Positions 18,029 through 34,895 of a stretch of DNA of 64,000 bases are shown here, one piece after another. A program made the position numbers and the translations under genes. Source of the DNA: Bacteroidota bacterium. GTDB taxonomy: Bacteria > Bacteroidota > Ignavibacteria > Palsa-1295. The stretch is from positions 310,001-374,000 of the forward strand of contig JAFDZW010000005.1 in NCBI GenBank assembly GCA_018266755.1. The letters are read 5' to 3'. Each line of letters starts with the position of its first letter. The stretch's first letter is position 1. The notes beneath the pieces are model-generated. The model was not told the origin of the DNA. It saw nothing but the letters and a program-made list of their open reading frames with translations, and did no database searches.

Positions 18029-21000
18029 CTACTTGATCAGTTCGATCTTGCGAGTAGCAACTCCCATGCCGCTTTGAACACGGACGTAGTAGGAGCCAGA
18101 CGTCAACTGATCGGCTGACAGCTGGTACGTATACTTGTCAGTGGTTGCAAGAGCATTTGTCAACTCCATAACTTTTCTTCCGAGCGCGTCGAATAGTGTG
18201 ACGTTCAGTGGCGCATCCTTCTCAACGGTGACAGAGACGGTTGTTGAGGAAGTGAATGGATTCGGTACAATTGTAACGAGTGGATCCTTTCGTTCAACAA
18301 CTGTCGATGTTGGCTGCGAAATTGTCTTATAGCTCGGCGCGTCTGGAGCAATCATGTCCAAATAATCACCGTCCATCACGACGCAGTTGTTGACGCTGAA
18401 CGAATCGGCGACATTCCCACGTGAAGCTTCAATGCTCATGTACACAAGTCCGACGGGGGCGCTTGATACATAGTATGAACCGTGTGTGCTTCCTCCAACG
18501 GCGATTGATTGTGTAACTCCATAGCGCTTAGACAGATTTACCGAGTCGAGAACAGCCACGAGAGCATTTGTACCGTTACTTCTCAGTAGTATTCTCACCT
18601 TCGCAAAATCATTCGAATCTGCAAGCGATGCAGCTATCGCCGAAGTATCCCCGGCTGTATACGTGCCGACCTGAAAATAGCGGTCATAGGAAAGAGTATC
18701 GCCTGCTGACAATGCAAATAATTCCGAATTGTACCGATTGTCATCCCAGCCTATCGGCGATGAGACATCTACTGTATTAGATGACAGAGCAAGGTCGCTC
18801 ATGCCAACTGCCGTTTGACTACTATCATGCTTGATCACAATTGAACTCATGCTTCCGCCTACTACGCCTTTGCAATATAGATTCGGGATGAGACTGATCC
18901 TAAACTGCGGCAGCTTCGTTTGTGACACAGGTGCAAGCGGAAAATCGTACTGGCTGATCTTTGCGACTGAACCTGCCTTATCAGTAATTTCCCGATAAAG
19001 CACTGGCCTTGGAATGTCATTTCGTCGATGATACATTGCCATCGCAGGTTCGAGCGATGGCTCGATCATCTTGAACGTCTCCCAGCCGTGTTGCAATGGA
19101 GTACCGCCAGTCGAATCATTTCGTCCCCATTGGGCAAACCCGAATACTCCTGAGATGGAATCATGCCACATAAACCTTCTCCATATCGAACCCCATGCTC
19201 CATTGTCATCGAAGTACACACTATCGCTCATCATTGCCACATTTGGGAACAAATGGGCCGAATAACCTATGCCAGCCGGAAGCGTATCTCGAACAACAAC
19301 GAATTTGATAGCCGACCCCAACCAGCCATTCAAAGGGTCTCGTTCTCGTTCAACAGCTGACTGCTTCTGAATTGTCACTCCACCGCGAATGAACTGAGGT
19401 TCGCTCTCTTCCCAGATCACACCTGCTCGACCATGCTTGTCTACCGTGATTTGTGGGAAATGATCATTATCACAGCCTGTATTCGCAATGAAATTCGAGA
19501 TGTTCTTGATCGCTGATTTTGTTATTGATCCACTGCCATAGACGGCGTTCATGTAGAAAATATCAGCGGATCCCCACCCTGTATATTCTTCCCATGCCAG
19601 ATGCACCGTATCCAATGGCGTATGTGTAGCCAATGAAATGAATTTTGGTTCGCCGGAAGATGTGGCTGCAAAAGTTGTGCTTGCCAATTTGCTACCAGAA
19701 GTATTTACAAGTGTCAGCTGACCACCGAGCGATGGATGTCTCCATGAGATCCAGAACGTGTTGGTGCTATTATTAGCTGGAACAATCGCTGGTGCAGCTT
19801 CAAATGGAATATCAGATCCTGAATTATGCACTGTAAACGAGTCCAGTCTCACTGCCGGAATAAATGCATACGGCAGCGTATTCGTGGTCTGGGTGTGATA
19901 AATAACAATTGTATCATTATGACCACTATGAGTATCATAGTGCGTCACAGCATACACGAGACCGATCTTGTTGTTCGGCTTGTTGTAGGCGATTGCGGGT
20001 GTCGAGCATAAGCCTGAGCCATCAATAATCGTATCTACTGGTGACGCGACAGAGCGTTTGGAAATACCGCTCGGTGTTTCGACCGGGTAGCTGACCACGA
20101 TCTTTCCAGAACGTTGATACGTCGTTAAGAAGCGAGTGGTGCTCGTGTCCGTTTCAACCGCAGCAATGTGTCTGGCATTGTTGTATGTGTTTGTTGCCAT
20201 TTGCCCAAGTTGCAGACCAATCGCTGGCGCGATGCGGAAAAGCTTTCCTTGACCGGGTTTAACTGTGAAGGAGAATGTGTCATGGGCAGAGATCGTTGTA
20301 TCATGCACTTGCCCTGATACATCTGTGACACGCCAATCAGATACAGATGCAAACGCCTTACCAAATTTGGTCGAATCAACAATGAACGAGATCGTACGGT
20401 AGTCTGTAGTAAGCGTATCGAGAGGATCACACCAGAGTCGCCGATTCAGTAGTGTTATGTATGTCGCCGTCGAGTCGGAAGGAAGTTTGCTAATTCCAAT
20501 ATCAACGTATGTCTCCGCATCTGAATCAACTGATCCCGTCAGTGTCGCAGAACGAACGTTCCTGATTGGAAGTATCGCAAGATTTGTCGGAGTCGAATCA
20601 CGCATATGCCATGATAATGCGCCCTTCCAACTTAGTCCGGCAAGTGTGTGCACAATAGGAGCAAGTTCTTCATTGATAATCGACCTGAAGGTTGGATACA
20701 TCTCTTTAAAACCGGGAGGAAGCTCAGTATAGCGATAGGTGTTACAATACCACGCTCCCGTTGAATCGGCAGAGTGCCGAATGTAAATCGAGTCGGAACC
20801 AGCAAGCTTGATGTCGCACTGCTGGATTGTGATACACGTCCTGTCTTGCGATCTAACTAAACTATCTCTACCGCCAAAGCCAGTGGTGTCGAATATTATT
20901 CCATTTTGGATTTGGCGATCATCGTACGCAATGTTCACTACATACCCCTTCATACCGTGCTGAACGCCGCTCCAAAATTGATAATCCGCTTCTGCAGCAG

Positions 21001-22903
21001 TTGTAGCTCGGTTGATCCAAATCGGGTCAAACATCGAGTCCTCGCAGTAGACGTTTGTACCAGCATGCCGATTCAGATACGGGACGACAACTCGCCGATT
21101 GTAAAGTGAATCAACATTCGTATCCGCTTTGGCTGCGGCGAGAACGTGAGCATCCCAATCGCTTTTGCCTTGTGTCTTCCAATAGGCTCTCACCGAATCA
21201 TATACAAGACCGTACAGTACAGAATCTCCCGAATGAAGTGCATCGTCGGTTGCCCATCGACGGATCGTCCATCGGAACGGATTTGCTTGTGCCATTAGAA
21301 GGTATGGTTGTGGATGTTGCACATCGTACAGGTAGCAAGCCTGACTTCGGTTAAACTGCGTCTGTGCATCTCCGCGTCCGCCCCCGAACATGTCTGAATT
21401 GTAACCGATAATGTCGTTCTGCCAATGATACGTGTAGCTTGTGTAGTCATTCATAATTGAGATGCCCTTAAGAAATGGCTTTACAGTATCCCCTGCAGGA
21501 GCGAATGGAAAAGGCATTGGTGTTGATGGATAGCTCTGGGATGACTGATAGGCCCAATACCGTTTAGGATAACCACTGCTGGTCGTATCCCACGCCGTTC
21601 TCCAACCCTCCCCTGTGAATGGAGTCCATTCATGCCAAAGATTTGCCGGATAGATATTCGTGCCATTAGAATATTCCATTTGGTCATGCATAACTCGTTG
21701 CAATAGCTCGTAGGAGATCGGTGCAAGAACATTGGCTCTCGGTGCATGAAGTCGCACACATTGATCATTCAAATACGACCAAGCATGAAATGCCTTTACG
21801 TCAATTTCATTGCCGACCGTCCAAGATGCAATTGAATCGTTATTTAGATAGTGTAGGAGATGGTATATTGGAAAATATAGCTGAGACTCGGCAGCACGAG
21901 TAAGAAGACGTTGACCTACCCAATCCCGAATTCGTAACAGTCGAACGTAGATTGGCAACTTGTGAAAAGTGCGAACGCGAACATCTACTGAAGGTGGTCT
22001 ACCAAAGTCTCCAACATCTCTTCCGTCCTCGTAGTAGCTCCGGACATTCAGGATTCGCTTCTGAATTTTGTAATTATGACTTTGCTGTCCCGTCCACTTG
22101 GCAAGGTATTCAGCTGTGATGAAATGTCCAGCCGCTTGAGTGCTTGCGATGGATAACGTCCGGTATTTGGCCTTCGTTATCGTATCGGCAACTATTAGCA
22201 CATAGCCTGTATCACTCGCCTTCCTTATCCAATACTCAACCGAATATAGAGCGTCATTGTCTCCAACCGATGACGTATCCGTCGGAGCAAAATAATAAAC
22301 CAGTTCGTATGAATAGCTTCCTACGTGTGTTGGATTGAGAACTGGTTGACCCCATCCGCCCGGAGTATAGGGATCAATCGTCGCGTCGGCGTTCACGCCC
22401 AGAACACCAGAAAGATCACTCAAGATATATTGACCTGAAGGTATTCCTGCGGTGTCCACAAACCATTCCGGATCTGACGGTGAAATCAAGCTCCCAGCCT
22501 TATTCTTCCATCCGTACGTGTACTCACTTGTCTTGTCGCTCGTTCCGGGCAGGTACACACGAACGTCTACGCCGTATGCTGCAGAAAGCAGGATGGAGTA
22601 TGGTGCGACTAATACGGGCGCATGTGTCGTGTCATAGTAGAATGGATCGGCGACATGGTAGCTCGTGTCATCAATTGGTTGCGATTGCAATGTGAATTTG
22701 ACTGCCGAATCGCTTCCTGCGAATCCCCACCAATTGAAGTTCATACCAAGCATGTGCTGGAGCGTATCTGCCACAGGGTATCTCAATCCTCCGACTGGAA
22801 AGATCGAGTATGGGCAAATGGCTTTCAATGAATCAGGATTCTGCGCAAACGCTGTTGAGGTCAACGCGCAAAATAGAAGCACAAGTAATATGCGAGTTTT
22901 CAT
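18029..22903 (-). CDS. Large secreted protein with T9SS type A sorting domain and possible glycosidase-like region, about 1624 aa
   Basis: A signal peptide (KTRILLVLLFCALTSTAFAQ) opens the protein. The last about 85 residues are a type A C-terminal sorting domain (VTIVPNPFTSSTTVSV, LFDALGRKV, SGSYYVRV), which directs export by the T9SS and attachment to, or release from, the outer surface. Near residue 366 is SWTVGNEID, the acid/base Asn-Glu seen in clan A glycoside hydrolases, with FTGEGWRT and other aromatic stretches after it. The middle holds repeat-like segments with frequent HLAWEEYT- and KPNNKIGLVYAVTHYDT-type motifs, as in BNR/beta-propeller repeats. The start ATG at 22903 is chosen to begin at the signal peptide. 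The next gene upstream is another T9SS protein. Confidence 0.75.
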   Translation of the reverse strand: MKTRILLVLLFCALTSTAFAQNPDSLKAICPYSIFPVGGLRYPVADTLQHMLGMNFNWWGFAGSDSAVKFTLQSQPIDDTSYHVADPFYYDTTHAPVLVAPYSILLSAAYGVDVRVYLPGTSDKTSEYTYGWKNKAGSLISPSDPEWFVDTAGIPSGQYILSDLSGVLGVNADATIDPYTPGGWGQPVLNPTHVGSYSYELVYYFAPTDTSSVGDNDALYSVEYWIRKASDTGYVLIVADTITKAKYRTLSIASTQAAGHFITAEYLAKWTGQQSHNYKIQKRILNVRSYYEDGRDVGDFGRPPSVDVRVRTFHKLPIYVRLLRIRDWVGQRLLTRAAESQLYFPIYHLLHYLNNDSIASWTVGNEIDVKAFHAWSYLNDQCVRLHAPRANVLAPISYELLQRVMHDQMEYSNGTNIYPANLWHEWTPFTGEGWRTAWDTTSSGYPKRYWAYQSSQSYPSTPMPFPFAPAGDTVKPFLKGISIMNDYTSYTYHWQNDIIGYNSDMFGGGRGDAQTQFNRSQACYLYDVQHPQPYLLMAQANPFRWTIRRWATDDALHSGDSVLYGLVYDSVRAYWKTQGKSDWDAHVLAAAKADTNVDSLYNRRVVVPYLNRHAGTNVYCEDSMFDPIWINRATTAAEADYQFWSGVQHGMKGYVVNIAYDDRQIQNGIIFDTTGFGGRDSLVRSQDRTCITIQQCDIKLAGSDSIYIRHSADSTGAWYCNTYRYTELPPGFKEMYPTFRSIINEELAPIVHTLAGLSWKGALSWHMRDSTPTNLAILPIRNVRSATLTGSVDSDAETYVDIGISKLPSDSTATYITLLNRRLWCDPLDTLTTDYRTISFIVDSTKFGKAFASVSDWRVTDVSGQVHDTTISAHDTFSFTVKPGQGKLFRIAPAIGLQLGQMATNTYNNARHIAAVETDTSTTRFLTTYQRSGKIVVSYPVETPSGISKRSVASPVDTIIDGSGLCSTPAIAYNKPNNKIGLVYAVTHYDTHSGHNDTIVIYHTQTTNTLPYAFIPAVRLDSFTVHNSGSDIPFEAAPAIVPANNSTNTFWISWRHPSLGGQLTLVNTSGSKLASTTFAATSSGEPKFISLATHTPLDTVHLAWEEYTGWGSADIFYMNAVYGSGSITKSAIKNISNFIANTGCDNDHFPQITVDKHGRAGVIWEESEPQFIRGGVTIQKQSAVERERDPLNGWLGSAIKFVVVRDTLPAGIGYSAHLFPNVAMMSDSVYFDDNGAWGSIWRRFMWHDSISGVFGFAQWGRNDSTGGTPLQHGWETFKMIEPSLEPAMAMYHRRNDIPRPVLYREITDKAGSVAKISQYDFPLAPVSQTKLPQFRISLIPNLYCKGVVGGSMSSIVIKHDSSQTAVGMSDLALSSNTVDVSSPIGWDDNRYNSELFALSAGDTLSYDRYFQVGTYTAGDTSAIAASLADSNDFAKVRILLRSNGTNALVAVLDSVNLSKRYGVTQSIAVGGSTHGSYYVSSAPVGLVYMSIEASRGNVADSFSVNNCVVMDGDYLDMIAPDAPSYKTISQPTSTVVERKDPLVTIVPNPFTSSTTVSVTVEKDAPLNVTLFDALGRKVMELTNALATTDKYTYQLSADQLTSGSYYVRVQSGMGVATRKIELIK

Positions 22904-22948
22904 ACGATACTCCAATTGTACTGTTGATGGATACGGTTGTTGTTGATG

Positions 22949-24562
22949 TCAATGATGAACAATGAACTTGGTCGATACTTGGAAGCCGTTTATTTCAAGC
23001 CGAACAACATACGTCCCGGTCGGCCATCCTTCGGTATTAAAATAGGCAATATCGTGATTTCCGTCCAGTATAACCGCTCTCTTTGCGACGCTATTTCCAA
23101 GCAGGTTAAAGACAGTCAGCGTACCGTCTCCACTGATCGACGTGCTAATGTTACATCTGCTAAACTTGTCTGCCAGCGACGGCGACATTACCACTGTGTT
23201 CTGTTCGGGACTTCTCCATAGCACTGATCCATCCATAGCAGGATTCGTCCGATGAGGAATGGTTTCGCAATTTCGCGATACAAGCAGGTCAAGATCCTGA
23301 TGGTTTGCATTTGCATCAAGGAAATCATTCACCAGACATACAGTTCGTCCGCTCGTGTTGATGGTATGCAGCGTATCTATGTTGCCCAGACCGTTACACT
23401 CGATTTTGATGGAAGCATCAAAGAGACTATCAAGCGCTTTTCCACCAGCATAAAAGAATATGTAGTTTGCTGATATACCACCAGCCGATTGGGAAGTAGT
23501 GACTGCCAGATACGGAACGCCGCTTCCGGAAAGATCACCAACTGCTCTCATTTGCAGACCAAAATCTGGGTTAAGAAAGCCGTAGTTTCCGAAGTCGGTT
23601 AGACGCGGCGACTTGATCGTGTAGAAGGCGTTTTCTGGTGAAAGTGCGACAGTTCCAAAGCTTTCATCACCCTTGAAGATATAGAGTCTTAGTCCATCGG
23701 AAACAATCAGATCGGTCACTCCATCTCCGGTAATGTCTGTAGCATACATACTCTTAACTACGATGCCACCATTCGCGCTATCGGAGATTAGTTTAATCGG
23801 ATTATCGTGTAAGTGATGGTTTGCCATGTTAACCATGTACGTCCGCGGCCCATCCGTGAACAGCACCGAAGACTCATGGACTGACCTGAACTCACCTGTG
23901 ACCATAGTCCACATTGCATAAAGTGACGGCTTATCAAGGACAAGAGAATCATTTGCAAACATGAATGGCATTGATCCGAACTCTTTACTGCCTGTGTAAC
24001 GCAAAATGAAATTATGCAGGCCATCCGAACCTTGAGATAAGAGGTCAGTGAATGACACCTGATCGAAATGGACGGCACCAATAAATCTCTGAAGACTACC
24101 ATGAAACGCAAGACGTGACGAGTACGACGAGCCAAAGTGCATGCTCGAATTAACTCCCAGATATACTGCATTAAAGAGAGCATCAATAATATCGCCAATC
24201 CCATCCCCATTAAAATCTCCGAACAACACTGGGTTACAGCCGACTGCGCAACCGATACACGGTGCAGGACTTGAGTCAAGAATCAAATCACCTCCGTACC
24301 GGATTGTCGCAGAATCAGAGTTTCCCTTGATTATGAAGTCCTCCCACTGATCACTATTCTGCCTTCCGATGTTCAAGAATCCAGACAAGTCATTTCCGAC
24401 AGCGATTGTATCCATGCTGCCGCTCAAATCAATCGCATTCGGATCTGCAGCGCCTTGAGCAGATAGCTTTGGCACAATAACGAACAAGAACCCGATGACC
24501 AAGAGAACTCTCATAAAACAATAAGACACCTTTGTCGTCGATATGGCGCAATGTTTTTTCAT
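22949..24562 (-). CDS. Secreted FG-GAP/VCBS-repeat protein with T9SS sorting domain, 537 aa
   Basis: A signal peptide (VLLVIGFLFVIVPKLSAQG) precedes a body with calcium-loop repeats of FG-GAP/VCBS type, such as DFNGDGIGDIIDA, DITGDGVTDLIVSD and GDLSGSGVPYLAV. These normally build a seven-bladed beta-propeller that binds calcium and ligands at the cell surface. The end (LTVFNLLGNSV, WPTGTYVVRLEI, KFIVHH) is a T9SS-type C-terminal domain. Two starts are possible: 24562, giving a 16-residue n-region, or 24514 (MRVLL). It is transcribed with the 18029 gene, about 45 bp upstream of it. Both are likely cell-surface or released proteins of the same export system. Confidence 0.75.
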   Translation of the reverse strand: MKKHCAISTTKVSYCFMRVLLVIGFLFVIVPKLSAQGAADPNAIDLSGSMDTIAVGNDLSGFLNIGRQNSDQWEDFIIKGNSDSATIRYGGDLILDSSPAPCIGCAVGCNPVLFGDFNGDGIGDIIDALFNAVYLGVNSSMHFGSSYSSRLAFHGSLQRFIGAVHFDQVSFTDLLSQGSDGLHNFILRYTGSKEFGSMPFMFANDSLVLDKPSLYAMWTMVTGEFRSVHESSVLFTDGPRTYMVNMANHHLHDNPIKLISDSANGGIVVKSMYATDITGDGVTDLIVSDGLRLYIFKGDESFGTVALSPENAFYTIKSPRLTDFGNYGFLNPDFGLQMRAVGDLSGSGVPYLAVTTSQSAGGISANYIFFYAGGKALDSLFDASIKIECNGLGNIDTLHTINTSGRTVCLVNDFLDANANHQDLDLLVSRNCETIPHRTNPAMDGSVLWRSPEQNTVVMSPSLADKFSRCNISTSISGDGTLTVFNLLGNSVAKRAVILDGNHDIAYFNTEGWPTGTYVVRLEINGFQVSTKFIVHH

Positions 24563-24759
24563 TCTGTGTCAGGTCAATCCTTCATGACCCATTTTCAAAC
24601 ACGCTAAGCCAGCAAATATTGCATCAAATTGATGTCAATTCAACCTCTTCTCTCGCACAATTCTCTCCTGCGATGTTGACGCATTGTGGCCGGAATGGGT
24701 TACTATTTCTGCAATCATTGCCAATGATGAGTAAGAGCCAAATGCTACTGTCATTCCCA

Positions 24760-26985
24760 TCACTCAATGATCGAGAACGATGCCGTCTCAACGCCATTGT
24801 CAGTATCAACGCTCATTGTGTATTTTCCGGGCGGCAGGTCCGGCAATGTGATCAATTGATCTTCTCCTGCCTTCCCATCGCACTGTTGTGACAATACTTT
24901 GCCACCATCACCGTTGCAGACAATCACATTCGTGATCACATCGGCGCAGCGAACACATAAGATCTTCTGATCGCCATTCTTCTCAATGAACAATGTTACC
25001 TTCCTGTTCGCGCTTGTTTCTGCTTCATATAGTTTCTCATCTTTGTCCGTTGAACGAAAGAGACCGCTAATAATATATTGTGCAGCATAGATCAATGCGT
25101 ATGCTGGCTGATGCATGACAAGCTTAACAAAGCCAAAGCCGAAAGCGAACATAACTCCGAAGACAAGGGCACTCATCCCAGATTCCCATAGCTCAGACTC
25201 TCTGAATTCCTTTCTGAACAACGCGACCGCACCAACTCGCCAGTTCGAAGGGTCTGCCTGAATTGTCCCAAATCTGTCTGAGAACCAGAACATCAGGAAG
25301 CTACCGCTGAACATGGACGCAACAAGTTGATCATTCCCTTCTGAACGCCCTGCTGCGTAGGAATAGAACAGATACTCGATGAGCAAAACGGAGCTAAGCA
25401 GATAAAGAAGATGAATCTTCAAGCTATGTGCCGAGAACTTCCGATCAGGCGAGTAGTATGGTGAGATGCTTAACGCATTCGAAACAAATATTGCATACTG
25501 CGCCACACAGAACACCATGAAGACAAGACTGATCCAGCTGGCGCTCTTCACAGCCGGACTCAGGAGCCAGAAATCAAAGAAGCCATGACAAAGTGCTGCA
25601 AGAAGAAGACCGCCCAAGAACCCATATCGAATCCGCGACTTTCCTTTGTACCTTGAAAGAATGATCCCGTATGCGACAATTGAAGAGAAGAACATATGGC
25701 CGAACACACTGATCAATGCCCTGCCATGAACAATGTTGATAGCATCTCTTTCAAAATACATCAAGTTCTCCACGAATGCAAATCCAAGCGCGGAAACCGA
25801 AGCATATATGATGAAGTCGATTGGTTCAGCTATTTCATCCTTGAATAAGAGCAAGCCGATCAATAATGGCAGGATCTTTACACTTTCCTCGATCAGTCCT
25901 ATCCCAAAAACACAGTAAAGAGCATCTGTCAGGATATTCGAGTGATAGTTACTTCCGATGAGATGACTGAGATAATCGTACAATGGAAAGGCGATGATCG
26001 AGCAAAGCATACCCAATACACACGTACCGATCAAATACCGCCATTTTTCGGATCCATACAGATCAATATCACGAAGATAGACAAGCCATGCTATTAGGAT
26101 CAGTAATGCTGCAATAAAACCCTGCCAATTCAAATTGACCTCCAATGTCCTGAACAGTCCGTTGATATACCCAATGAAGTCATTCGTATTGAAATATGCA
26201 AGCCTGAAAACTTCTGAAGGGCAATATTGAAGCATTCGAGGATCATGGCTCAGAACCTTTACGACTTCCTCCCACTGATCAGTAAGGACCAAGCATTTAA
26301 GCAGATTGCTTGCAGCGCCGGGAAGATTGCCATTCAATGCTATTTCATTCCGGAAGAACGTTTCGGCTCGTCGTATCGAATCTGCGTTAGCTGTTTCATG
26401 TGACATCGCTATACCCAGATACACATGACCAATGGAATTGTTGAGATATTTGAGCGACCTATTTTTGACGCTGGCGAACGCGGCAAGTGCTTCTGGGTAA
26501 TGCTTCAAATGGCTTTGAATCAATCCTAAGCAATAGAACCCGATGTCGGCTTGGCCTTGATCAGATCTCCTCGACCATTGGTAATAGTGTTGCGTGAGTG
26601 AATCATCATTCCGATAGGTTACTTTCTTTGAATCATCATCCTTGACTTCATCCGGCATTGACATATGTGAATCAATTAGCCAGAAATGATTGTCGATATT
26701 CAGCGAATCTCCAGTTCGTAAGTCGTCAAGGATCGCAAGAGCATGGCTCGGCCAATTGTGATCGTCGTAATATTTGGCTTGTTCGAGCCTGCTGAGATGA
26801 TCAAGTGATGCTGGACGTATAAAGAAGACGTTGACAACGACGACAGCTGCAACTAATGCAGTGAAGATAGCCAGTATTGGTCTGCGAAAGTACCAGTGCT
26901 TTTCATCTGTCTGCTCGATGAAGATGCCTTTCAGCCGTTGCAGTAGGTCTTCAGTTGCAGGATCTTTAGCTTCTGTTTCAGGCAT
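24760..26985 (-). CDS. prsW: PrsW-family glutamic intramembrane protease with N-terminal TPR-like region, 741 aa
   Basis: The C-terminal half is a PrsW-type membrane domain: EESVK (Glu366-Glu367, Lys370), ENLMY (Glu406, Tyr410), GHMFFS (His430), and HGFFDF (His467, Asp471) lie on successive transmembrane helices. Known PrsW proteins cleave membrane-bound substrates such as anti-sigma factors. A first membrane segment is at about 38-57. Residues 60-280 between it and the next are soluble and helical with TPR-like pairs (YCLGLIQSHLKHYPEALAAF, GHVYLGIAMSHETAN). The last about 100 residues are cytoplasmic or periplasmic beta-rich (LFIEKNGDQKILCV, MSVDTDNGVETASF). A TPR-like insert is not part of the short PrsW I know. 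It ends a five-gene operon. Confidence 0.75.
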   Translation of the reverse strand: MPETEAKDPATEDLLQRLKGIFIEQTDEKHWYFRRPILAIFTALVAAVVVVNVFFIRPASLDHLSRLEQAKYYDDHNWPSHALAILDDLRTGDSLNIDNHFWLIDSHMSMPDEVKDDDSKKVTYRNDDSLTQHYYQWSRRSDQGQADIGFYCLGLIQSHLKHYPEALAAFASVKNRSLKYLNNSIGHVYLGIAMSHETANADSIRRAETFFRNEIALNGNLPGAASNLLKCLVLTDQWEEVVKVLSHDPRMLQYCPSEVFRLAYFNTNDFIGYINGLFRTLEVNLNWQGFIAALLILIAWLVYLRDIDLYGSEKWRYLIGTCVLGMLCSIIAFPLYDYLSHLIGSNYHSNILTDALYCVFGIGLIEESVKILPLLIGLLLFKDEIAEPIDFIIYASVSALGFAFVENLMYFERDAINIVHGRALISVFGHMFFSSIVAYGIILSRYKGKSRIRYGFLGGLLLAALCHGFFDFWLLSPAVKSASWISLVFMVFCVAQYAIFVSNALSISPYYSPDRKFSAHSLKIHLLYLLSSVLLIEYLFYSYAAGRSEGNDQLVASMFSGSFLMFWFSDRFGTIQADPSNWRVGAVALFRKEFRESELWESGMSALVFGVMFAFGFGFVKLVMHQPAYALIYAAQYIISGLFRSTDKDEKLYEAETSANRKVTLFIEKNGDQKILCVRCADVITNVIVCNGDGGKVLSQQCDGKAGEDQLITLPDLPPGKYTMSVDTDNGVETASFSIIE

Positions 26986-27000
26986 GATGTTAATCGACGA

Positions 27001-27435
27001 CTACTTCTTAATGGATGTCCCGGTCGTATTTCCGTGTTTGTCCTTGTGAACGATAGTGTTGCCATTGACAACGTCTCTCCCAGTTGCATTGCCATGAGCA
27101 TCTTTGTATATGACCTCGTTTCCCTGTCTGGTAGCGCTGCCTATTGCATTGCCGTTCTGATCCTTGTATATGGTGATATTCTTCTGTTGAACAGCCGATC
27201 CTGTGGTGTTGCCGTGACTATCCCTATAAGTTGTCCGATCATTCCTATTCTCCTCATAGCCGATTGTATTTCCGTGCCGATCCTTATTCACCGTCATATT
27301 CCCTTTTTGCTGCGACGTACCAACAGAATTGCCGTGAGCATCTTTGTGCGTTGTCGTGACGGTTTTTTGACCGAATGCACAAGGAGCGCTTGTGACGACT
27401 GCTAAGACGAGCAAAGAGTACAGTAGTGTTTTCAT
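27001..27435 (-). CDS. Exported repeat protein with six 20-residue repeats, 144 aa
   Basis: A signal peptide (LLYSLLVLAVVTSAPCAFG) is followed by about six copies of a 20-residue unit with the pattern T-x-x-KD-x-HGN-x-x-G, for example NKDRHGNTIG, YKDQNGNAIG and HKDKHGNTTG. The repeat also shows at DNA level as an about 60-bp period. The repeating KD...HGN...G gives a fibrous or solenoid surface, possibly metal- or polysaccharide-binding, but no family is certain. Its ATG overlaps the stop of the DUF4116-like gene by four bases (ATGA), so translation is coupled. PrsW follows after 15 bp. The repeats look intact, with no frameshift. Confidence 0.6.
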   Translation of the reverse strand: MKTLLYSLLVLAVVTSAPCAFGQKTVTTTHKDAHGNSVGTSQQKGNMTVNKDRHGNTIGYEENRNDRTTYRDSHGNTTGSAVQQKNITIYKDQNGNAIGSATRQGNEVIYKDAHGNATGRDVVNGNTIVHKDKHGNTTGTSIKK

Positions 27436-27641
27436 GATCGGTGGTTAGTATGATGATCGCGTTCGACCGCTGCTTTTTGCACAGATTGGAAAGGGTTACT
27501 TATGAACTGAATCGTCTCCGGGTCATTGTTGACAGCCAGCAGTTGAAGATCTTCCGTTTGATTAGCGATGTCTTTGATCGACATCGGATCTCCATCGACT
27601 GCCTTAAGATCAGCGATTGATACTCGGAGTATGTCGCTCAT
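27432..27641 (-). CDS. DUF4116-like small protein, 69 aa
   Basis: The product has no signal peptide and contains LQLLAVNNDPETIQFISNP followed by SVQKAAVERD, which recalls the helical repeat of DUF4116 proteins (a hydrophobic pair, an Ala-Val, then a short Asn-rich turn). The match is partial, so this is a tentative call. The coding region ends inside the ATG of the 144-aa repeat protein, and the gene before it ends ten bases upstream. It is thus the third of the five tightly packed genes of the PrsW operon. No catalytic residue is visible. Confidence 0.45.
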   Translation of the reverse strand: MSDILRVSIADLKAVDGDPMSIKDIANQTEDLQLLAVNNDPETIQFISNPFQSVQKAAVERDHHTNHRS

Positions 27642-27650
27642 TGAATCCGT

Positions 27651-28049
27651 TTACTTTCCTTCTTGGGAATCGTCATCGTCCAGATGATATGCAAGATTCA
27701 TTGCTTCCTGCCGTTGAAGGAGAAATGCGCTGATATGCGTGTTCGTTTGAATATTGTTAACAGATGATAGCAGAGCGCCAATACCTATTAGCGTCAGTGC
27801 ATTCACGAGCAAGAGAGCGGCGACCATTGCAGTCAACATTCCGAAACCAAGTGATTGCGCTCCAGTTTGCCCGGCGAATAGCTGGTAGATCAAGTACGCC
27901 GAAAACAACGCAACTACAAGACCAACAGCTGAAAGGATCACACTGTACGCCGACCCGATAATTCGCTGAACTTGCGCTTCTCGAAAGTCACCAACTGATG
28001 GACCGCGTTTCTTGGAAGCAGTATTGTTTTCCGGTAGAGTCATAGTCAT
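27651..28049 (-). CDS. Two-helix membrane protein of unknown function, 132 aa
   Basis: Two hydrophobic segments (about 38-58, VILSAVGLVVALFSAYLIYQL, and about 71-95, GMLTAMVAALLLVNALTLIGIG) are framed by polar ends. The C-terminus is acidic (LDDDDSQEGK). AAGGA lies just upstream of the first ATG at 28049, and a second ATG two codons later gives better spacing. It is the second gene of the PrsW operon, between the OB-fold lipoprotein and the DUF4116-like peptide. It could be a PrsW substrate or partner by context only. Confidence 0.5.
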   Translation of the reverse strand: MTMTLPENNTASKKRGPSVGDFREAQVQRIIGSAYSVILSAVGLVVALFSAYLIYQLFAGQTGAQSLGFGMLTAMVAALLLVNALTLIGIGALLSSVNNIQTNTHISAFLLQRQEAMNLAYHLDDDDSQEGK

Positions 28050-28083
28050 ATTCCTTCTTTACGTGGTTATTCATGATCGCCCG

Positions 28084-28716
28084 TCAGTCCATCTTCTTGC
28101 CGACCGACGCAGTGATTACTGCCGCTGGTGCTTTCGCTGACTTGATGTGATAAACACCCATAAACTTTCCTGTGAAGGCTACATTGTCTCCTGCCTTAAG
28201 ATGTGTAAACGCAGGTATGGTTTTGTAAGATGTTCCATTTTGGCCGCACAAGAAGATAATCCCATCAGGAAACATATTGCCAACACAGACCATTATCCCA
28301 CTTTCGTCCTTTGTTTCCATTGGCTGACCTTTATCGTCACCTTTCACAGTCGCACTAAATGTATACTCTCTTCCTGCGAACATCTCCTCATTTTCGACCA
28401 TCTCGTTAAACCGCCTCATCTGCGTCATGACATCTGCTATGTAACCAAGCTTGGTCGCGGAGCCACTTTTCTCTTCCTTGCCATCAGTGATGCGTTTGAG
28501 CGAATCAACCTGCGCCTGAAGGACGGCCACAGCAGATTCTGCATTAGACTTATCCGGTGCAACCGCTGGTGGTGGAGTCATCATTGAATCGCTGCTCGGT
28601 CTCGTATCCACGGACTTCTGAGCAGTTGCCTTTCCTTCGTCAGTCTTACCGCAGCCGATGAATGTTGTGATACAGATCACAATGGCGATATACTTCAATT
28701 GATGTAGATGTGTCAT
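28084..28716 (-). CDS. OB-fold-like lipoprotein, about 210 aa
   Basis: The signal sequence ends in FIGC, a lipobox. A short coiled coil (ESAVAVLQAQVDSLKRI) follows. The C-terminal about 100 residues form five strands with turns, with ATVKGDDKG, GIMVCVGNM, TSYKTIPAF and HLKAGDNVAFTGKF, in the order seen in tRNA_anti-like OB-fold lipoproteins. The start ATG at 28716 replaces an upstream TTG. It is the first gene of the PrsW operon, reading away from the XRE regulator. Its promoter must lie in the 124-bp divergent region with the 19-bp dyad. Confidence 0.6.
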   Translation of the reverse strand: MTHLHQLKYIAIVICITTFIGCGKTDEGKATAQKSVDTRPSSDSMMTPPPAVAPDKSNAESAVAVLQAQVDSLKRITDGKEEKSGSATKLGYIADVMTQMRRFNEMVENEEMFAGREYTFSATVKGDDKGQPMETKDESGIMVCVGNMFPDGIIFLCGQNGTSYKTIPAFTHLKAGDNVAFTGKFMGVYHIKSAKAPAAVITASVGKKMD

Positions 28717-28787
28717 GATGATCAACGAATAGTAAATGATGCCGTCTTATGCCTGCAATTTTCAGTTCAAGCCAAGAAAATGTCATA

Positions 28788-28806
28788 TTTGATGTACTAC
28801 ATCAAA
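28788..28806. promoter_or_regulatory. Perfect 19-bp dyad, likely operator of the XRE regulator
   Basis: TTTGATGTA (28788-28796), one central base, then TACATCAAA (28798-28806) form a perfect palindrome. It sits 34 bp in front of the XRE gene's ATG and 72 bp in front of the divergent lipoprotein start, between the two. Such a spacing is what autoregulating XRE repressors use. Confidence 0.6.
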
Positions 28807-28840
28807 CCCTTTCAAACGAATATACGGCATATTTGCGTCG

Positions 28841-29050
28841 ATGGACGCAAGGAAAATCATAGGGATCAACATTCGGCGATTCAGGAAGGAAATCGACTGG
28901 ACTCAAGAGAAACTTGCGGTCAGACTTAAAGTCTCAAACGAATTCATCAGTAGGCTCGAACACGGTACTGAATATCCAAGCATTAGGCTGTTGGAGCAAA
29001 TGGCAAAGCTCGTTGATCACAAACTTTTCGAGTTCTTCATCGAACATTGA
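28841..29050 (+). CDS. XRE-family transcriptional regulator, 69 aa
   Basis: The whole protein is one HTH_3 domain: IGINIRRFRKEIDWTQEKLAVRLKV, then SNEFISRLEHGTEYPSIRLLEQMAKL. The recognition helix is ISRLEHG and the domain is complete at 69 residues, the usual size of a stand-alone lambda-repressor-like regulator. It probably represses its own gene and perhaps the divergent PrsW operon through the 19-bp dyad in the gap. No effector domain is present. Confidence 0.85.
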   Translation: MDARKIIGINIRRFRKEIDWTQEKLAVRLKVSNEFISRLEHGTEYPSIRLLEQMAKLVDHKLFEFFIEH

Positions 29051-29056
29051 AGCAAT

Positions 29057-29103
29057 AAAAAAACCGGCCAGCAACCATCTCTGATCACCGACCGGGCTTT
29101 ATT
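29057..29103. terminator. Possible weak bidirectional terminator
   Basis: Between the convergent XRE and 29117 genes an A-run is followed by CCGGCC and, about 25 bases on, GACCGGGC and a T-run. The arms pair imperfectly, so this is tentative. Confidence 0.35.
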
Positions 29104-29116
29104 TGTGAGACCACTC

Positions 29117-29623
29117 TTAGTTTACCGAGAATCCGGGCATTTCATCAAAATAATCATCCTCGTCGTCTTCGATAACAATCTCGTAGCTATTTGCTCTAAT
29201 CTCTTCTGCTTCTGCCTTTGTATCAAGGCCGAACACCGACTCGATATACCCTTCGATTACACCTACTGAACCGGGCACAATCAATCGAATATCCTGAATC
29301 TTCCAAGTATGATCTGAGGATCGGGCAATCTTCAGATACGCCTGTTGACCGCGATCTTCTTTGTCATTTGGGTCAAAGAGGATTATTTCGAGTCTACCAT
29401 GATCCCTGCAGTCGGATAGATGACACGTTATGATGTCATAGTGCAAGCCTTTGTTCAGAAATTCCAGCAAGATCCATTCTGCATTAGGCAACTTCACGAT
29501 TTCGTCTGCAAAATACCTACTCATGTCGACATGATAAGGATTTTGTGAATAGCTGCTCAACAATTGTTCTAAGAGCATTGCCGGACTAATAATGCGAGTA
29601 AACGTATTTGTATTCGTCTTCAT
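29117..29623 (-). CDS. Small orphan protein, about 168 aa
   Basis: A mixed alpha-beta protein with no signal peptide. It opens MKTNTNTFTRIISPAML and has a strand-turn-strand block (GRLEIILFDPND, QAYLKIARSSDHTWKIQDIRL). The end is strongly acidic (VIEDDEDDYFDE). The chosen ATG at 29623 has GGAGA seven bases upstream. The frame before it is open to 29653. It is the last of three similar-sized genes read leftwards (30775, 30236, 29623). None is recognised. They lie between the PrsW operon and the replication module and may be cargo of that element. Confidence 0.45.
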   Translation of the reverse strand: MKTNTNTFTRIISPAMLLEQLLSSYSQNPYHVDMSRYFADEIVKLPNAEWILLEFLNKGLHYDIITCHLSDCRDHGRLEIILFDPNDKEDRGQQAYLKIARSSDHTWKIQDIRLIVPGSVGVIEGYIESVFGLDTKAEAEEIRANSYEIVIEDDEDDYFDEMPGFSVN

Positions 29624-29792
29624 ATTTGGTCTCCGTATATGATGATTTCTCAATATTGATCAGCACCGTGCCGATCTTCATTATAACTATTACCATATTT
29701 CGTTTTTACCAAAATATTCTGAGACCATTTTACACTATTACGATCATCGAGCGAACGGTATTAGGTGATATTGATACGATCCGGAATCACTC

Positions 29793-30236
29793 TCACGATT
29801 CATCACTTAATGTCTTCGCTCGTGGCACAACGGCAAGCACAAACCGATCATTCTCTTTTGCAAGTCGCAGTGTGACTGCATAATCTTCTCCGTCATTCGG
29901 GCGAACCTGACATTCGACGGTTGCTACCTTGTTCCGAATCTTTGCCGACAACAATTTGACATAATCATTCGCGAGGATCGTAAGACTCTTTCTCAGATCT
30001 TGTTCGGACAGCTCATTGCTGGATAGGTATTTGAGAGCAATCAATGCGTTCGTTTCGTCCTCTGAATCCAGAATTGCTCCGGCTTCAGATAAGCGAAATA
30101 GTCGTATTGCAGTGTCCCTGATTGAATCGACAATGGCATCATCTATTGGCGATGATTTTTGCCCGGTCACAAAGTTGACATGAATTACATTGGTTGAGTT
30201 GTTTTCGGTAATGTTGGTAGATTGCTCTGTGGGCAT
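29793..30236 (-). CDS. Small orphan protein, 147 aa
   Basis: An unstructured, Asn/Thr-rich N-terminus (TEQSTNITENNSTN) is followed by a helical and strand-rich remainder (IRDTAIRLFRLSEAG, RKSLTILANDYVKLL, DYAVTLRLAKENDRFVLAVV). The ATG at 30236 is the only reasonable start. Lies 29 bp after the 30266 gene's stop. No known domain. Confidence 0.45.
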   Translation of the reverse strand: MPTEQSTNITENNSTNVIHVNFVTGQKSSPIDDAIVDSIRDTAIRLFRLSEAGAILDSEDETNALIALKYLSSNELSEQDLRKSLTILANDYVKLLSAKIRNKVATVECQVRPNDGEDYAVTLRLAKENDRFVLAVVPRAKTLSDES

Positions 30237-30265
30237 AATGGTTGTGAGTGAAGTTGAAAATGTGT

Positions 30266-30775
30266 TTAGGTATTGTCTGCGATTGTAAGCATCGTTACTA
30301 AGAGATCGACATTGTCGAGGACGTTTACAGTCCTGAACTTGCCCTTCTCATTTTGCTGCATTAAGAAGCATATCGTATCACTTCTGCCATCATCGGAGAT
30401 CTGGACGATTGCATGGTTTTTGTAGGCTACGATATTGAGCGGCACGGAATCGCGAATGCCCTTGACTTTTGTAAGATATCCAAGAATTGCGGATGTTGCC
30501 GCACCCGGAACAAAGAAGTCTTGCGCCTGCTCGATGAGATCCGGGATTGCTGCTGGATCGTCGTTCACAGCCGACGCGATTGATAAGATCTGTTCGATGG
30601 GGTATAGGAGCAACTCCTCGATGGTCTGATGACGAATATTTGTACCATAATGGCGCTTGCCTTGCGAATCCGTCGACACAAGAGTCGTTGGCTGCTCGAA
30701 TATGGGTATCCGGTCGATGTTTAGCTCTTTGAGTACAATCATATTCTGCTTCGGTCTAAATGTGTGCTTGTCCAT
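30266..30775 (-). CDS. Small orphan protein, 169 aa
   Basis: The product begins MDKHTFRPKQNMIVLKEL and has repeating amphipathic helices (TIEELLLYPIEQILSIASA, AAIPDLIEQAQDFF) and strands (PLNIVAYKNHAIVQIS, TVNVLDNVDLLVTML). No signal peptide or membrane segment is present. It is the first gene of the three-gene set and follows the second RHH gene by 73 bp on the same strand. No family can be given. Confidence 0.45.
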   Translation of the reverse strand: MDKHTFRPKQNMIVLKELNIDRIPIFEQPTTLVSTDSQGKRHYGTNIRHQTIEELLLYPIEQILSIASAVNDDPAAIPDLIEQAQDFFVPGAATSAILGYLTKVKGIRDSVPLNIVAYKNHAIVQISDDGRSDTICFLMQQNEKGKFRTVNVLDNVDLLVTMLTIADNT

Positions 30776-30848
30776 TCATCATCCTATTATAAATCAGCTG
30801 GTACGATGATAGCGTTCACTTCTGCTTGCATCATGATCTGCATCTGCT

Positions 30849-31088
30849 TCATTCGTTTGGATTGTTTGGCAATGCCTTTTCAGTTGTTGTCGGGTCGTGG
30901 AAGTCGTTTGCACGGATGATTGAATCAATTATCATTTCCGATCTCGTGTATTTCAGCAATTTGTCTTCAGTGCTATTTGCGATGACTGTCTTTGCTATGC
31001 TTTTATCAATAGCGGCAACCAACCATCCCGGACAATGGAAGGATATGTGCTGCGCTTTTGGTAATGTTGATACAATGGTCTGTTCCAT
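30849..31088 (-). CDS. Ribbon-helix-helix-like DNA-binding protein, 79 aa (paralogue of the 33921 gene)
   Basis: The middle reads FHCPGWLVAAIDKSI, then LLKYTRSEMIIDSII, a short beta strand followed by two helices as in RHH proteins. The stretch YTR-x-x-(I/L) and the following helix recur in the product of 33921-34133. AGGAG lies eight bases before the ATG at 31088. It lies between the primase-helicase terminator and the orphan-gene set. A dimer would bind a short palindrome. Such proteins are typical repressors of copy number or partition on plasmids. Confidence 0.55.
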   Translation of the reverse strand: MEQTIVSTLPKAQHISFHCPGWLVAAIDKSIAKTVIANSTEDKLLKYTRSEMIIDSIIRANDFHDPTTTEKALPNNPNE

Positions 31089-31192
31089 ACGACTTACTCC
31101 TAATGAATGTTGAATGATGATATTGATAAATACCGCAATAAATGCGATGGTGTCACTTTGTCATGATTTTCATGGAGGATAGTGAAAAAGGA

Positions 31193-31235
31193 ATCGGCTG
31201 CAATAGTCCGGTGGAAGACTACCAGCAGCCGATTG
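31193..31235 (-). terminator. Terminator of the primase-helicase gene
   Basis: AATCGGCTGC (31193-31202) pairs with GCAGCCGATT (31226-31235), loop 23 bases. On the minus strand the stem is followed by CCTTTTTC. It begins about 20 bp after the stop at 31256. Confidence 0.65.
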
Positions 31236-31255
31236 TTAGGGATAAAGGGTCTACT

Positions 31256-33127
31256 TTAGTTGAGCGAAGGCTGTGAAGTCCCGATTGAGAGTGGATCTGT
31301 TTGCAAAGCATTCGGCTTCTTTTTCAAGACTGGTTCAGAGTCTTCACTAAAACGCATCGTCTTCCGGTTCATCATGAATGGTACGTCGCCTTTGCCACCT
31401 TTGCGGTTCTTCGTGATTGTAATCGTAACGTTTACCATTTCTGGACTCTTCACTTCGCGTTCATCATCCTGCCATATTGACAGCATGAAATCAGCTGCTT
31501 CTGCTATGCTTCCCGAATCACGGCTACTGTTAATATCTGGCCGTTCGTTATCTGCCTTACTTTTGTTTATCTGCGTCAAGAATATGATCGGCACATCCAG
31601 CTGTTTGGCGAGATCCTTGATGCTTCTGGCAGCACTCGATACGCGTTCGTAAAGATTATTCCCCACGCCCTGTACGAGTCCAAGATAGTCGATTACGACC
31701 AGCCCGGTCTTTTTTTGGTATATTGATTGTTCGGCGAATTCGATGTATTGTCGAATCTTGTCGATTGTCAAGCCACTTTTCTCAATCGTATATAGATTCG
31801 GCAACTTTGAGAATATCATCTTTGCCAGTTCTGGTATCCCGTCAGTGCTTTCGATGAAGGATTGTTCCACCGTCGCACCCTGCAATTCAAGTTCAATCTG
31901 AATCGCACGTTCCACGACACTAACTATCGGCATTTCCATCGAGAAGAACAAGACTGGCTGACCTGTCGCCTTTGCATAGTTATGCGCGAAATTCTGCGCT
32001 CCCGCAGATTTGCCGCCACCAGCTTTGCCTTGTACTACTAATACTTCTCCGGGAGCAATGCCACGTAGTTTGCTGTCAAGAATCGGATAGCCCGTCATAA
32101 CCTTACGTTCGCTAATCCGCTGAGAATACTGCCAGTACTTTTCCACTGCTTCCTGTATGCTGTAAATATCCTCGCTCAGATCACCTTTTGACACATCTGC
32201 GTATCGCGCATAGGCTTTTTCAACGACTCCAATCAATTCTTGTTCTGACATTGGCGGTTCGTTGTGTTTATTCCACATTCGCAAAATAGCTTCGGCTTCA
32301 AATTCCTTCATCCCACGCTGAATCAAGGTTCCGCACAATTGCATTGCCGAGCGATTTCGTGCTCCGTCAGATACTCCTCGGAGTAACTCTTCAAAGTTCG
32401 CCTTCGGAGATCGGCGCTCTGTGCTTTCTTCTTGTACTTTCGACTTCACCGTGAAGTCATGCTTTGACCACTTTTGGTACAAATCAACGAGCGTTGGAAG
32501 CTCTTTACACTCATACGCAGGGAAGACAAAATCAAGTCTTGGCGATGCTGCAAGCTTTCTGATCGCTTCAGTATCCAGCGATTTCAGTTCAATATATGAC
32601 AAGGGAATCTTGAACAAACCTGACTTGCTATTTTTCGTATTCGGTAAGCGCAATAGACTTGTTGTCGAATAAATGGAGTCATCCATGTAGGTAAATGTGC
32701 CTGCAATATCATCAACGATTCCTGCTGCTATCTGTGAGAAATTATACCGTGGCGTAATCGCTCCGAATAGCTCAATTGGTAAAAACACGTGAAATCCTTT
32801 GCACCCGGAATAATAGATGCGCAGGCAGTTTGGATCAATGCCAAAATGTGCATCGAGATACATGCAGAACTTAATCGTTTCCTCCTGCACTGCTCGTAAA
32901 TTATCCTTGCAATCAAAATCAAATGGCAAAGCATGAGCAGTGTGTTTACCTGCATACGCCTTCACCGATCCGGTTCGATTAACCCAGAAGCTGAAATCTT
33001 CATCAAAATCAAATACTGACCGATAGCAATCCGTACGACCAACTGGCATTTGCACCGACTCACAGTTGACGACCGTATTACGATTTTGCACTCCACCAAT
33101 TACTAACTCACAATAACTGTACTTCAT
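31256..33127 (-). CDS. Replicative primase-helicase (AEP primase, PriCT, DnaB), 623 aa
   Basis: The N-terminal about 200 residues carry the archaeo-eukaryotic primase (AEP) motifs: DFDC (Asp70, Asp72), SGCKGFHVFLP at 107-117, and a later Asp149-Asp150 with RLPNTKNSKSG and FKIPL. A PriCT-1-like helical linker follows (NRSAMQLCGTLIQRGM, EAILRMWNKHN). From about residue 340 the DnaB-type RecA domain has Walker A GKAGGGKS at 367-374, Walker B VVIDYLGL, then IFLTQINK and SRDSGSIAEAADFMLSI. This fusion primes and unwinds in one polypeptide. It is a hallmark of plasmid, phage and satellite replication, and needs no host DnaG. It lies 54 bp after the initiator gene. Confidence 0.85.
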   Translation of the reverse strand: MKYSYCELVIGGVQNRNTVVNCESVQMPVGRTDCYRSVFDFDEDFSFWVNRTGSVKAYAGKHTAHALPFDFDCKDNLRAVQEETIKFCMYLDAHFGIDPNCLRIYYSGCKGFHVFLPIELFGAITPRYNFSQIAAGIVDDIAGTFTYMDDSIYSTTSLLRLPNTKNSKSGLFKIPLSYIELKSLDTEAIRKLAASPRLDFVFPAYECKELPTLVDLYQKWSKHDFTVKSKVQEESTERRSPKANFEELLRGVSDGARNRSAMQLCGTLIQRGMKEFEAEAILRMWNKHNEPPMSEQELIGVVEKAYARYADVSKGDLSEDIYSIQEAVEKYWQYSQRISERKVMTGYPILDSKLRGIAPGEVLVVQGKAGGGKSAGAQNFAHNYAKATGQPVLFFSMEMPIVSVVERAIQIELELQGATVEQSFIESTDGIPELAKMIFSKLPNLYTIEKSGLTIDKIRQYIEFAEQSIYQKKTGLVVIDYLGLVQGVGNNLYERVSSAARSIKDLAKQLDVPIIFLTQINKSKADNERPDINSSRDSGSIAEAADFMLSIWQDDEREVKSPEMVNVTITITKNRKGGKGDVPFMMNRKTMRFSEDSEPVLKKKPNALQTDPLSIGTSQPSLN

Positions 33128-33160
33128 ATTTCATTGTCCTTTCATATTGTTCATTCTCAG

Positions 33161-33179
33161 CTGTAATACTGTATTACAG
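33161..33179. promoter_or_regulatory. Perfect dyad CTGTAATA/TATTACAG in the initiator-helicase gap
   Basis: CTGTAATA (33161-33168), then CTG, then TATTACAG (33172-33179) form a perfect 8-bp palindrome with a three-base centre, in the 53-bp gap between the initiator stop and the primase-helicase start. The core GTATTAC recurs at 33075, 33807 and 34164 on the plus strand, so this could be an RHH operator or an iteron-like origin site. Confidence 0.5.
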
Positions 33180-33180
33180 A

Positions 33181-33921
33181 CTACACTCTATTATCGACCC
33201 ATGCTTCTTCGCCTGCAGTCAGATATTGGATTGGTTGCTTCTCGACCTGCGGTTGTTTGGGTGTCAACTTCGACAACCATCTATCCACGAAACCAATAAT
33301 ATCTTTCGGCTTTTTTTTCGGGTTGTCGTTGATCCACTTTGTCATCTTCTCGGACTCCGCTTGGAGCACGTCCGGTCCGATTTGATACTCGACCATTAGC
33401 CGACTCGATTCGGCTTTCGAAATCGAAAGCTGGCCGGATCGGAAACTCGCGGCGGCATTATCTGCATTTTGATCCATAGAAGGGAATGCAGAAGCTTTCT
33501 TTACTTTCTTTATTTTCTTTATATGGGGAGCGTTTTCACTCACTGTCGAGGGAGCAGATTCACTCACTCCAGAGGGAGCTGATTCGCTCACAGGGAGCAA
33601 TTTCACTCCCACCCATTGATTGTAGTCCTTGTTTAATCCGAGATGTCGGGCACTGTTTGCCGTGGGCGGTCGGACCTCTACGAGAATCCGCATTTGAATC
33701 AGTTCGCGCACATCTCGACGGACTTGCGTTGGATGCAATCCCGTCCGTTTCGAAAGGAAGTCATAACTCATTTGATGATCGGACTTCTGAAAACCATATG
33801 TACACCGTATTACAGCAAGGATAATGCGCCATTTACCGCCGGAAATATCGAGATATTGAAATCTGTCCAGCAACTCGTTCGCTATCCGGGTATATCCATC
33901 TTCCAATTGCGGCGAAGCCAT
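33181..33921 (-). CDS. Phage replication protein O-like initiator, 246 aa
   Basis: The N-terminal about 100 residues match phage_rep_O: MASPQLEDGYTRIANELLDRF, GGKWRIILAVIRCTYGF, and TGLHPTQVRRDVRELI. This is a winged-helix domain that recognises origin iterons in lambdoid-like phages and some plasmids. The middle has an Ser/Glu-rich linker with SESAPSGVSESAP, and the C-terminus is basic and helical (KMTKWINDNPKKK), where the helicase loader or helicase would dock. GGAGG lies just upstream of the ATG at 33921, which shares one base with the stop of the RHH gene (TAATG). The primase-helicase follows it. Confidence 0.8.
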   Translation of the reverse strand: MASPQLEDGYTRIANELLDRFQYLDISGGKWRIILAVIRCTYGFQKSDHQMSYDFLSKRTGLHPTQVRRDVRELIQMRILVEVRPPTANSARHLGLNKDYNQWVGVKLLPVSESAPSGVSESAPSTVSENAPHIKKIKKVKKASAFPSMDQNADNAAASFRSGQLSISKAESSRLMVEYQIGPDVLQAESEKMTKWINDNPKKKPKDIIGFVDRWLSKLTPKQPQVEKQPIQYLTAGEEAWVDNRV

Positions 33922-34133
33922 TATTGTACCTCCGCCTTCTCTTGCTGATAGCCGTAATATTTCTTGATCGCTTCAAGGATCAGATCCGTGCGGGTATACT
34001 TGTAAATTCTTCCCCGACTGCTATGCTCGTAGACAATCTCGGCGACCTTGCGATCAATAAACTCTTTCAAATCTTGATCACAACGGAATGATGTGATCGG
34101 CTTCTCTAATTGTTGATTGTACTTCTCTTCCAT
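33921..34133 (-). CDS. Ribbon-helix-helix-like small DNA-binding protein, 70 aa
   Basis: KPITSFRCDQDLKEFIDRKV gives a beta strand and first helix, and GRIYKYTRTDLILEAI the second half with the YTR signature. This fits an RHH fold, as in plasmid CopG or Arc-type repressors. The stop overlaps the initiator start by one base (TAATG), so it is coupled to the replication protein and heads the module. A paralogue is encoded at 30849-31088. Plus-strand DNA starting just 20 bp further may hold its operator. Confidence 0.55.
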   Translation of the reverse strand: MEEKYNQQLEKPITSFRCDQDLKEFIDRKVAEIVYEHSSRGRIYKYTRTDLILEAIKKYYGYQQEKAEVQ

Positions 34134-34153
34134 TTGTGCACCTGTATTTCACC

Positions 34154-34893: not shown

Positions 34894-34895
34894 AG

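What the first reader, a model, noticed from the sequence alone, without database searches (positions are those of the whole stretch)
24760..28716. Five-gene operon ending in a TPR-PrsW protease and including a 20-residue-repeat exported protein
The genes overlap or lie within 40 bp of each other. A PrsW-type intramembrane protease with a soluble TPR-like insert is unusual. Its neighbours, a repeat-rich exported protein, a DUF4116-like peptide, a two-TM protein and an OB-fold lipoprotein, look like candidate substrates or sensors. An XRE regulator and dyad precede it. Together this may be an undescribed envelope stress or toxin-release system.
Basis: partly seen in the sequence, partly recalled or inferred. 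Interest (0 to 1): 0.6.

Follow-up and report, generated by a model that had tools for sequence, protein, structure and literature searches.

The report
Orphan island-borne membrane protease gene cluster
A mobile stretch of DNA full of anti-virus genes also carries a five-gene cluster built around a membrane-embedded protease with unusual extra domains; the protease family is known, but this version and its partner genes were found in no other genome searched, so its role is still a guess.

Summary
Five same-strand ORFs lie 4 bp overlapping to 34 bp apart at 24760-28716 and all look coding. The last is a 741-aa protein with a complete PrsW core (Pfam E 6.7e-33; all four catalytic motifs). The soluble part is an N-terminal extension, not an insert; it is alpha-solenoid-like, but TPR identity is unproven. 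A perfect 9-bp dyad lies before a divergent XRE gene.

The context changes the reading. The operon is cargo on a ~44.5-kb low-GC island inserted beside tRNA-Glu(CTC), with a serine recombinase, phage-type replication genes and many defence genes (type I R-M, Mrr, DrmC-like, PDC-S54). A relative has the empty site; another has a related recombinase at the same tRNA. No other genome of the family has any PrsW gene, and no neighbour gene was found elsewhere.

Best reading: a horizontally acquired signalling-type PrsW with envelope sensor domains, its likely substrate the co-transcribed two-TM protein (inferred). This is a new variant of a known family. Moderate to low interest.

The parts
24760..26985 (-). 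Gene E, 741 aa: N-terminal TM helix (37-55), helical domain (about 58-285, TPR-like, unproven), PrsW intramembrane protease core (313-494), further TM segments, C-terminal Ig-like domain (about 650-741)
   Evidence: Pfam PF13367 E 6.7e-33; motif residues E366 E367 K370, E406, H430, H467 invariant in 12 sequences; model and fold matches
27001..27435 (-). Gene D, 144 aa exported protein, signal peptide plus six 20-residue repeats
   Evidence: ORF and repeats; coding score; no homologue in 60 relatives
27432..27641 (-). Gene C, 69 aa, DUF4116-like helical-repeat peptide, 4-bp ATGA overlap with D
   Evidence: PHROG 5925 E 1.8e-9; Pfam DUF4116 17.1 bits, below cut-off; phage relatives 39-47% identity
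27651..28049 (-). Gene B, 132 aa, two TM segments (36-54, 76-94), no family; candidate protease substrate (inference)
   Evidence: hydropathy; no homologue in 148 phylum genomes or viral contigs
28084..28716 (-). Gene A, 210 aa putative lipoprotein (FIGC lipobox); OB fold not confirmed
   Evidence: ORF; no Pfam or PDB match; only weak N-terminal matches in 296 genomes
28788..28806 (.). Perfect 9-bp inverted repeat TTTGATGTA-C-TACATCAAA, candidate XRE operator between the divergent genes
28841..29050 (+). Divergent XRE/HTH_3 regulator, 69 aa
   Evidence: HTH_3 E 7e-10
29064..29095 (-). Terminator-like stem (14 pairs) plus T run between XRE and the convergent gene block 29117-33921; sets the operon apart as its own unit
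   Evidence: total count not above chance; this is the strongest stem
31256..33127 (-). Island backbone: primase/DnaB-like helicase
   Evidence: DnaB_C 2.2e-43, phrog_19 8.4e-64
33181..33921 (-). Island backbone: phage O-like replication initiator
   Evidence: PF04492 3.3e-19
1..35100 (.). Part of the ~44.5-kb island inside the window (left end is about 9.4 kb upstream, at tRNA-Glu); right end approximate
   Evidence: GC 45% vs 53%; empty site in a relative

Best explanation
A horizontally acquired cargo operon on a tRNA-Glu-integrated, serine-recombinase island. SHOWN by sequence: E is a PrsW-type intramembrane protease with all catalytic motifs, extended by a soluble N-terminal helical domain and a C-terminal Ig-like domain; it is the last gene of a compact unit with a putative lipoprotein, a two-TM protein, a small DUF4116-like protein and an exported repeat protein. 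A divergent XRE gene with a dyad sits in front. INFERRED: by the positive-inside rule E has N-in topology, which puts the helical domain in the periplasm. There it, with the exported or lipoprotein partners A and D, senses an envelope condition or recruits a client, and the PrsW core then cuts a TM helix; B is the most likely dedicated client and C a cytosolic binder. The XRE protein represses the unit through the dyad. It works like the 'signalling' PrsW fusions already described (PilZ, cNMP, FHA, Zn-ribbon), not like the toxin-releasing PrsW proteins.
For: PrsW core and invariant motifs. Fold matches of the C-terminal domain: DUF3244 3d33 Z 9.5, rmsd 2.9, 88 aligned; RemA CTD 8gl6 Z 9.1, rmsd 2.1, 74 aligned. 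Helical-pair N-terminal domain whose best matches are alpha-solenoids, low confidence. Compact operon with ATGA overlap and coding scores. XRE and dyad. Island: GC step, Resolvase/Recombinase protein beside tRNA-Glu, empty site in relative G002, related recombinase at the same tRNA in G006, no PrsW in 12 other genomes of the family. Precedent for signalling PrsW fusions: PMC3482391, PMC12943098.
Against: No conserved partner genes, so co-function rests on co-transcription alone, itself inferred from spacing. No anti-sigma or other known PrsW substrate in the operon. Topology, sensing and substrate are untested. The N-terminal model is of low confidence (mean pLDDT 54). Recently acquired cargo may have little selected function.
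Confidence: 0.45

Rival explanations
1. Anti-phage or abortive-infection module: E senses phage-induced envelope damage and cleaves B (or frees a pore-like fragment), stopping growth; the repeat and DUF4116-like proteins are recognition parts.
For: It lies in an island with type I R-M, Mrr (mREase_IV 1.1e-85), DrmC-like PLD protein (6.2e-62), PDC-S54 (1.4e-114) and a PHP-AAA-type ATPase. DUF4116-like repeats are also found in phages. An XRE-controlled unit with a membrane protein is common in such cargo (general knowledge).
Against: None of the five proteins matches any PADLOC model. No paper held links PrsW to phage defence. Association by neighbourhood only.
Confidence: 0.2
2. Classical site-1 protease of regulated intramembrane proteolysis acting on an anti-sigma factor elsewhere in the genome (envelope stress, as PrsW/RsiW of B. 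subtilis).
For: PrsW core with all motifs.
Against: NCBIfam PrsW equivalog score 60 bits, far below the 225 cut-off; no sigma/anti-sigma gene in the operon; every other genome of the family searched lacks PrsW, so no circuit native to the family depends on it.
Confidence: 0.15
3. PrsW-type export and release of a toxin.
For: PrsW domains head some polymorphic toxins (PMC3482391); D is a repeat protein.
Against: In those toxins PrsW is N-terminal and the toxin C-terminal; here PrsW is central and the C-terminus is an Ig-like domain. No toxin or immunity domain in the operon.
Confidence: 0.05
4. Chance assembly of unrelated cargo genes that merely share a transcript.
For: No gene pair is conserved in any searched genome.
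Against: Tight spacing, ATGA overlap, and four of five products predicted for membrane or export.
Confidence: 0.15

Closest known systems
PrsW family (PF13367; NCBIfam 'glutamic-type intramembrane protease'), prototype B. subtilis PrsW/YpdC
   Same: Core domain with EExxK, FxxxE, H and HxxxD/N motifs
   Different: N-terminal helical and C-terminal Ig-like extensions; no anti-sigma partner; far below the equivalog cut-off
Signalling PrsW fusions (PilZ, cNMP-binding, FHA, Zn-ribbon; e.g. Leptospira LIC_20173, PMC12943098; PMC3482391)
   Same: PrsW core joined to soluble domains that may sense a signal
   Different: Here the partner domains are alpha-solenoid-like and Ig-like and probably face the envelope
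PrsW-dependent polymorphic toxins (PMC3482391)
   Same: PrsW in a multi-domain protein
   Different: No C-terminal toxin, no immunity gene, PrsW not at the N-terminus
tRNA-integrated defence islands with serine recombinase
   Same: tRNA target, recombinase, phage-like replication genes, R-M and other defence cargo, empty site in relatives
   Different: Carries the orphan PrsW operon; no clear long direct repeat found

Membership tests
PrsW-protease family (PF13367) | Score above Pfam's curated cut-off | tested here: met
   114.3 bits vs 23.5
PrsW-protease family (PF13367) | Four motifs EExxK, FxxxE, H, HxxxD/N (as listed in PMC12943098) | tested here: met
   E366 E367 K370, F402/E406, H430, H467 invariant in 12-sequence alignment, D471 present in E
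PrsW equivalog (NF033739, anti-sigma site-1 protease) | Score above the 225-bit cut-off | tested here: not met
   60.1 bits
PrsW/anti-sigma RIP system | Partner sigma/anti-sigma genes in the unit | tested here: not met
   No such Pfam match among the five genes
Signalling PrsW fusion | Soluble regulatory domain fused to the core | tested here: inconclusive
   Soluble domains are present but neither is shown to sense anything
TPR protein | Recognisable 34-residue repeats | tested here: inconclusive
   One window 147-180, 10 of 2000 shuffles reach its score; no TPR HMM hit; alpha-solenoid fold matches only at Z 5-7
PrsW-dependent polymorphic toxin | N-terminal PrsW followed by a C-terminal toxin domain | tested here: not met
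   PrsW at 313-494 of 741; C-terminus Ig-like
Known anti-phage defence system | Match to a PADLOC model in any of the five proteins | tested here: not met
   No match at E 0.01
tRNA-integrated genomic island | tRNA at one end, recombinase next to it, base-composition step, empty site in a relative | tested here: met
tRNA-integrated genomic island | Flanking direct repeat (usual, not obligatory; serine recombinases may leave only a very short one) | tested here: inconclusive
   Best exact match between the ends only 11-12 bp, chance level; no repeat of the tRNA 3' end

The most novel reading that the evidence does not exclude
The operon is an undescribed membrane-protease defence module: an envelope-facing PrsW sensor that cuts a dedicated two-TM partner on infection or envelope attack, spreading as cargo of defence islands.
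Probability: 0.12. Interest if true: 0.7.

Novelty: new variant of a known kind. Interest (0 to 1): 0.32.

Why it matters
If the operon does couple envelope sensing to intramembrane cleavage of a dedicated partner, it would be a self-contained PrsW circuit with sensor, protease and client in one transcript, on a mobile defence island. PrsW substrates are hardly known outside sigma-factor control. If it does nothing of the kind, it remains an example of how little of the cargo of such islands is understood.

Tried and rejected
Conserved operon: searches with E (101 and 395 genomes; genome contigs by E alone; by a PrsW alignment, 80 best loci), A (296 genomes), B (148) and D (61) found no second operon; viral contigs gave nothing for E, A, B, D or the helicase. 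Limits: the genome contigs alignment scan used one peptide pattern F[ND]EP[FYI]DGI and kept 80 loci, of which one (L077, 486 aa, Myxococcales) had a sizeable extension, so absence elsewhere is not proven. C was searched only in phages and by families. Insert reading: rejected, the helical domain precedes the PrsW core. OB fold of A: no support, not excluded. PDB sequence search with E found no solved relative. att repeats: none found. The structure model of E is weak outside the core and C-terminal domain (mean pLDDT 58.8).

Full report
Observation. The five minus-strand ORFs are present at the stated coordinates with a 34-bp gap (A/B), a 9-bp gap (B/C), a 4-bp ATGA overlap (C/D) and a 15-bp gap (D/E). 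Codon-usage scores support each as coding in its own frame, at the level of other island genes. E carries the PrsW-protease domain (6.7e-33, residues 313-494). The divergent XRE gene (HTH_3, 7e-10) and a perfect 9-bp inverted repeat at 28788-28806 lie upstream. A strong terminator-like stem at 29064-29095 separates this unit from the block 29117-33921 (the overall count of such sites is not above chance).

Domain anatomy of E. An alignment with 11 PrsW proteins from other genomes of the phylum keeps E366, E367, K370, E406, H430 and H467 invariant, and E has D471. These are the four motifs given for the family (PMC12943098). The N-terminal TM helix (37-55) is preceded by a basic stretch, so N-in topology and a periplasmic soluble domain are inferred. 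That domain is predicted as helical pairs both in the full model (mean pLDDT 58.8) and alone (54.3). Structural comparisons return mostly alpha-solenoid proteins at Z 5-7, which for repeats may be a common arrangement. One window, 147-180, has a TPR-like pattern (10 of 2000 shuffles reach it), but an HMM of TPRs from another protein of the same window does not hit. 'TPR-like' is thus plausible and unproven. The C-terminal 90 residues are better modelled (pLDDT mostly 64-85) and match DUF3244 (Z 9.5, 2.9 A, 88 residues) and the T9SS C-terminal domain of RemA (Z 9.1, 2.1 A, 74 residues).

How unusual. In 395 genomes of the phylum 82 have PrsW genes; E's reading frame of 746 codons is the longest, the next being 553, 492 and 486 and most 230-370. 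None of 12 other genomes of the same family has any PrsW gene. The best relatives share only the core, mostly at 25-34% identity.

Neighbours. A, B and D have no convincing homologue in the genomes searched; D's repeat resembles part of a Nostoc plasmid methyltransferase at 35.6%. C resembles DUF4116-like repeats, also found in phages, modelled as alpha-solenoid in PMC8078820.

Setting. The window's first 35 kb is about 45% GC against about 53% beyond. The low-GC stretch begins about 9.4 kb upstream of the window, at a tRNA-Glu(CTC) gene. Next to it lies a Resolvase/Recombinase-family integrase, whose reading frame runs into the tRNA. In relative G002 the flanking genes (arginase, OmpA-family, tRNA-Glu, lipoprotein, FG-GAP protein) are adjacent with about 50 bp between tRNA and lipoprotein gene: the empty site. 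In relative G006 a recombinase with 32% identity sits at the same tRNA. The island is thus about 44.5 kb. Its content includes HsdR/S/M, Mrr, a DrmC-like PLD protein, PDC-S54 and a PHP-AAA-type ATPase, a phage O-like initiator and a primase-helicase. No flanking direct repeat was found.

Interpretation. Zhang, Aravind and colleagues separate PrsW proteins that release C-terminal toxins from those fused to signalling domains (PMC3482391). E's layout, with a central PrsW and soluble domains on both sides and no recognisable toxin, fits the second class better. The most likely mechanism is envelope sensing or client recruitment by the soluble domains and exported partners, followed by intramembrane cleavage, with B as the prime client. 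Only the protease identity and gene layout are shown; sensing, client and control are inferred. Defence function is suggested by the setting alone and was not supported by any model or paper.

Verdict. A real, compact operon, not described in the sources searched, with an unusual PrsW protein, acquired on a mobile defence island; not a conserved envelope stress or toxin-release system on present evidence.

Noticed in passing
window 1-35100 plus L040 10585-20000: A ~44.5-kb island at tRNA-Glu(CTC) with a serine recombinase whose reading frame runs antisense into the tRNA (C-terminus ...ARTGIEPVSRP); empty site in G002 and a related recombinase at the same tRNA in G006: an integration hotspot.
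   Followed up: yes
window 16460-17719: 419-aa protein matching the candidate defence model PDC-S54 over its full length (1.4e-114).
   Followed up: partly
window 2655-3854: PLD-family protein matching the DISARM component DrmC (6.2e-62) with no other DISARM gene noted nearby.
   Followed up: no
window 9683-12715: 1010-aa PHP-like plus AAA/SMC ATPase (weak Ppl match 1.6e-19), a candidate defence gene.
   Followed up: no
window 31256-33921: Phage O-like replication initiator next to a primase/DnaB-like helicase without structural phage genes noted: the island may replicate as an element or phage satellite.
   Followed up: partly
window 2042-2638 and 3923-4498: Two related exported proteins (CGVERW.. 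/ CGIDRW.. start, NGxEIHPV end) flank the DrmC-like gene in opposite orientation.
   Followed up: no
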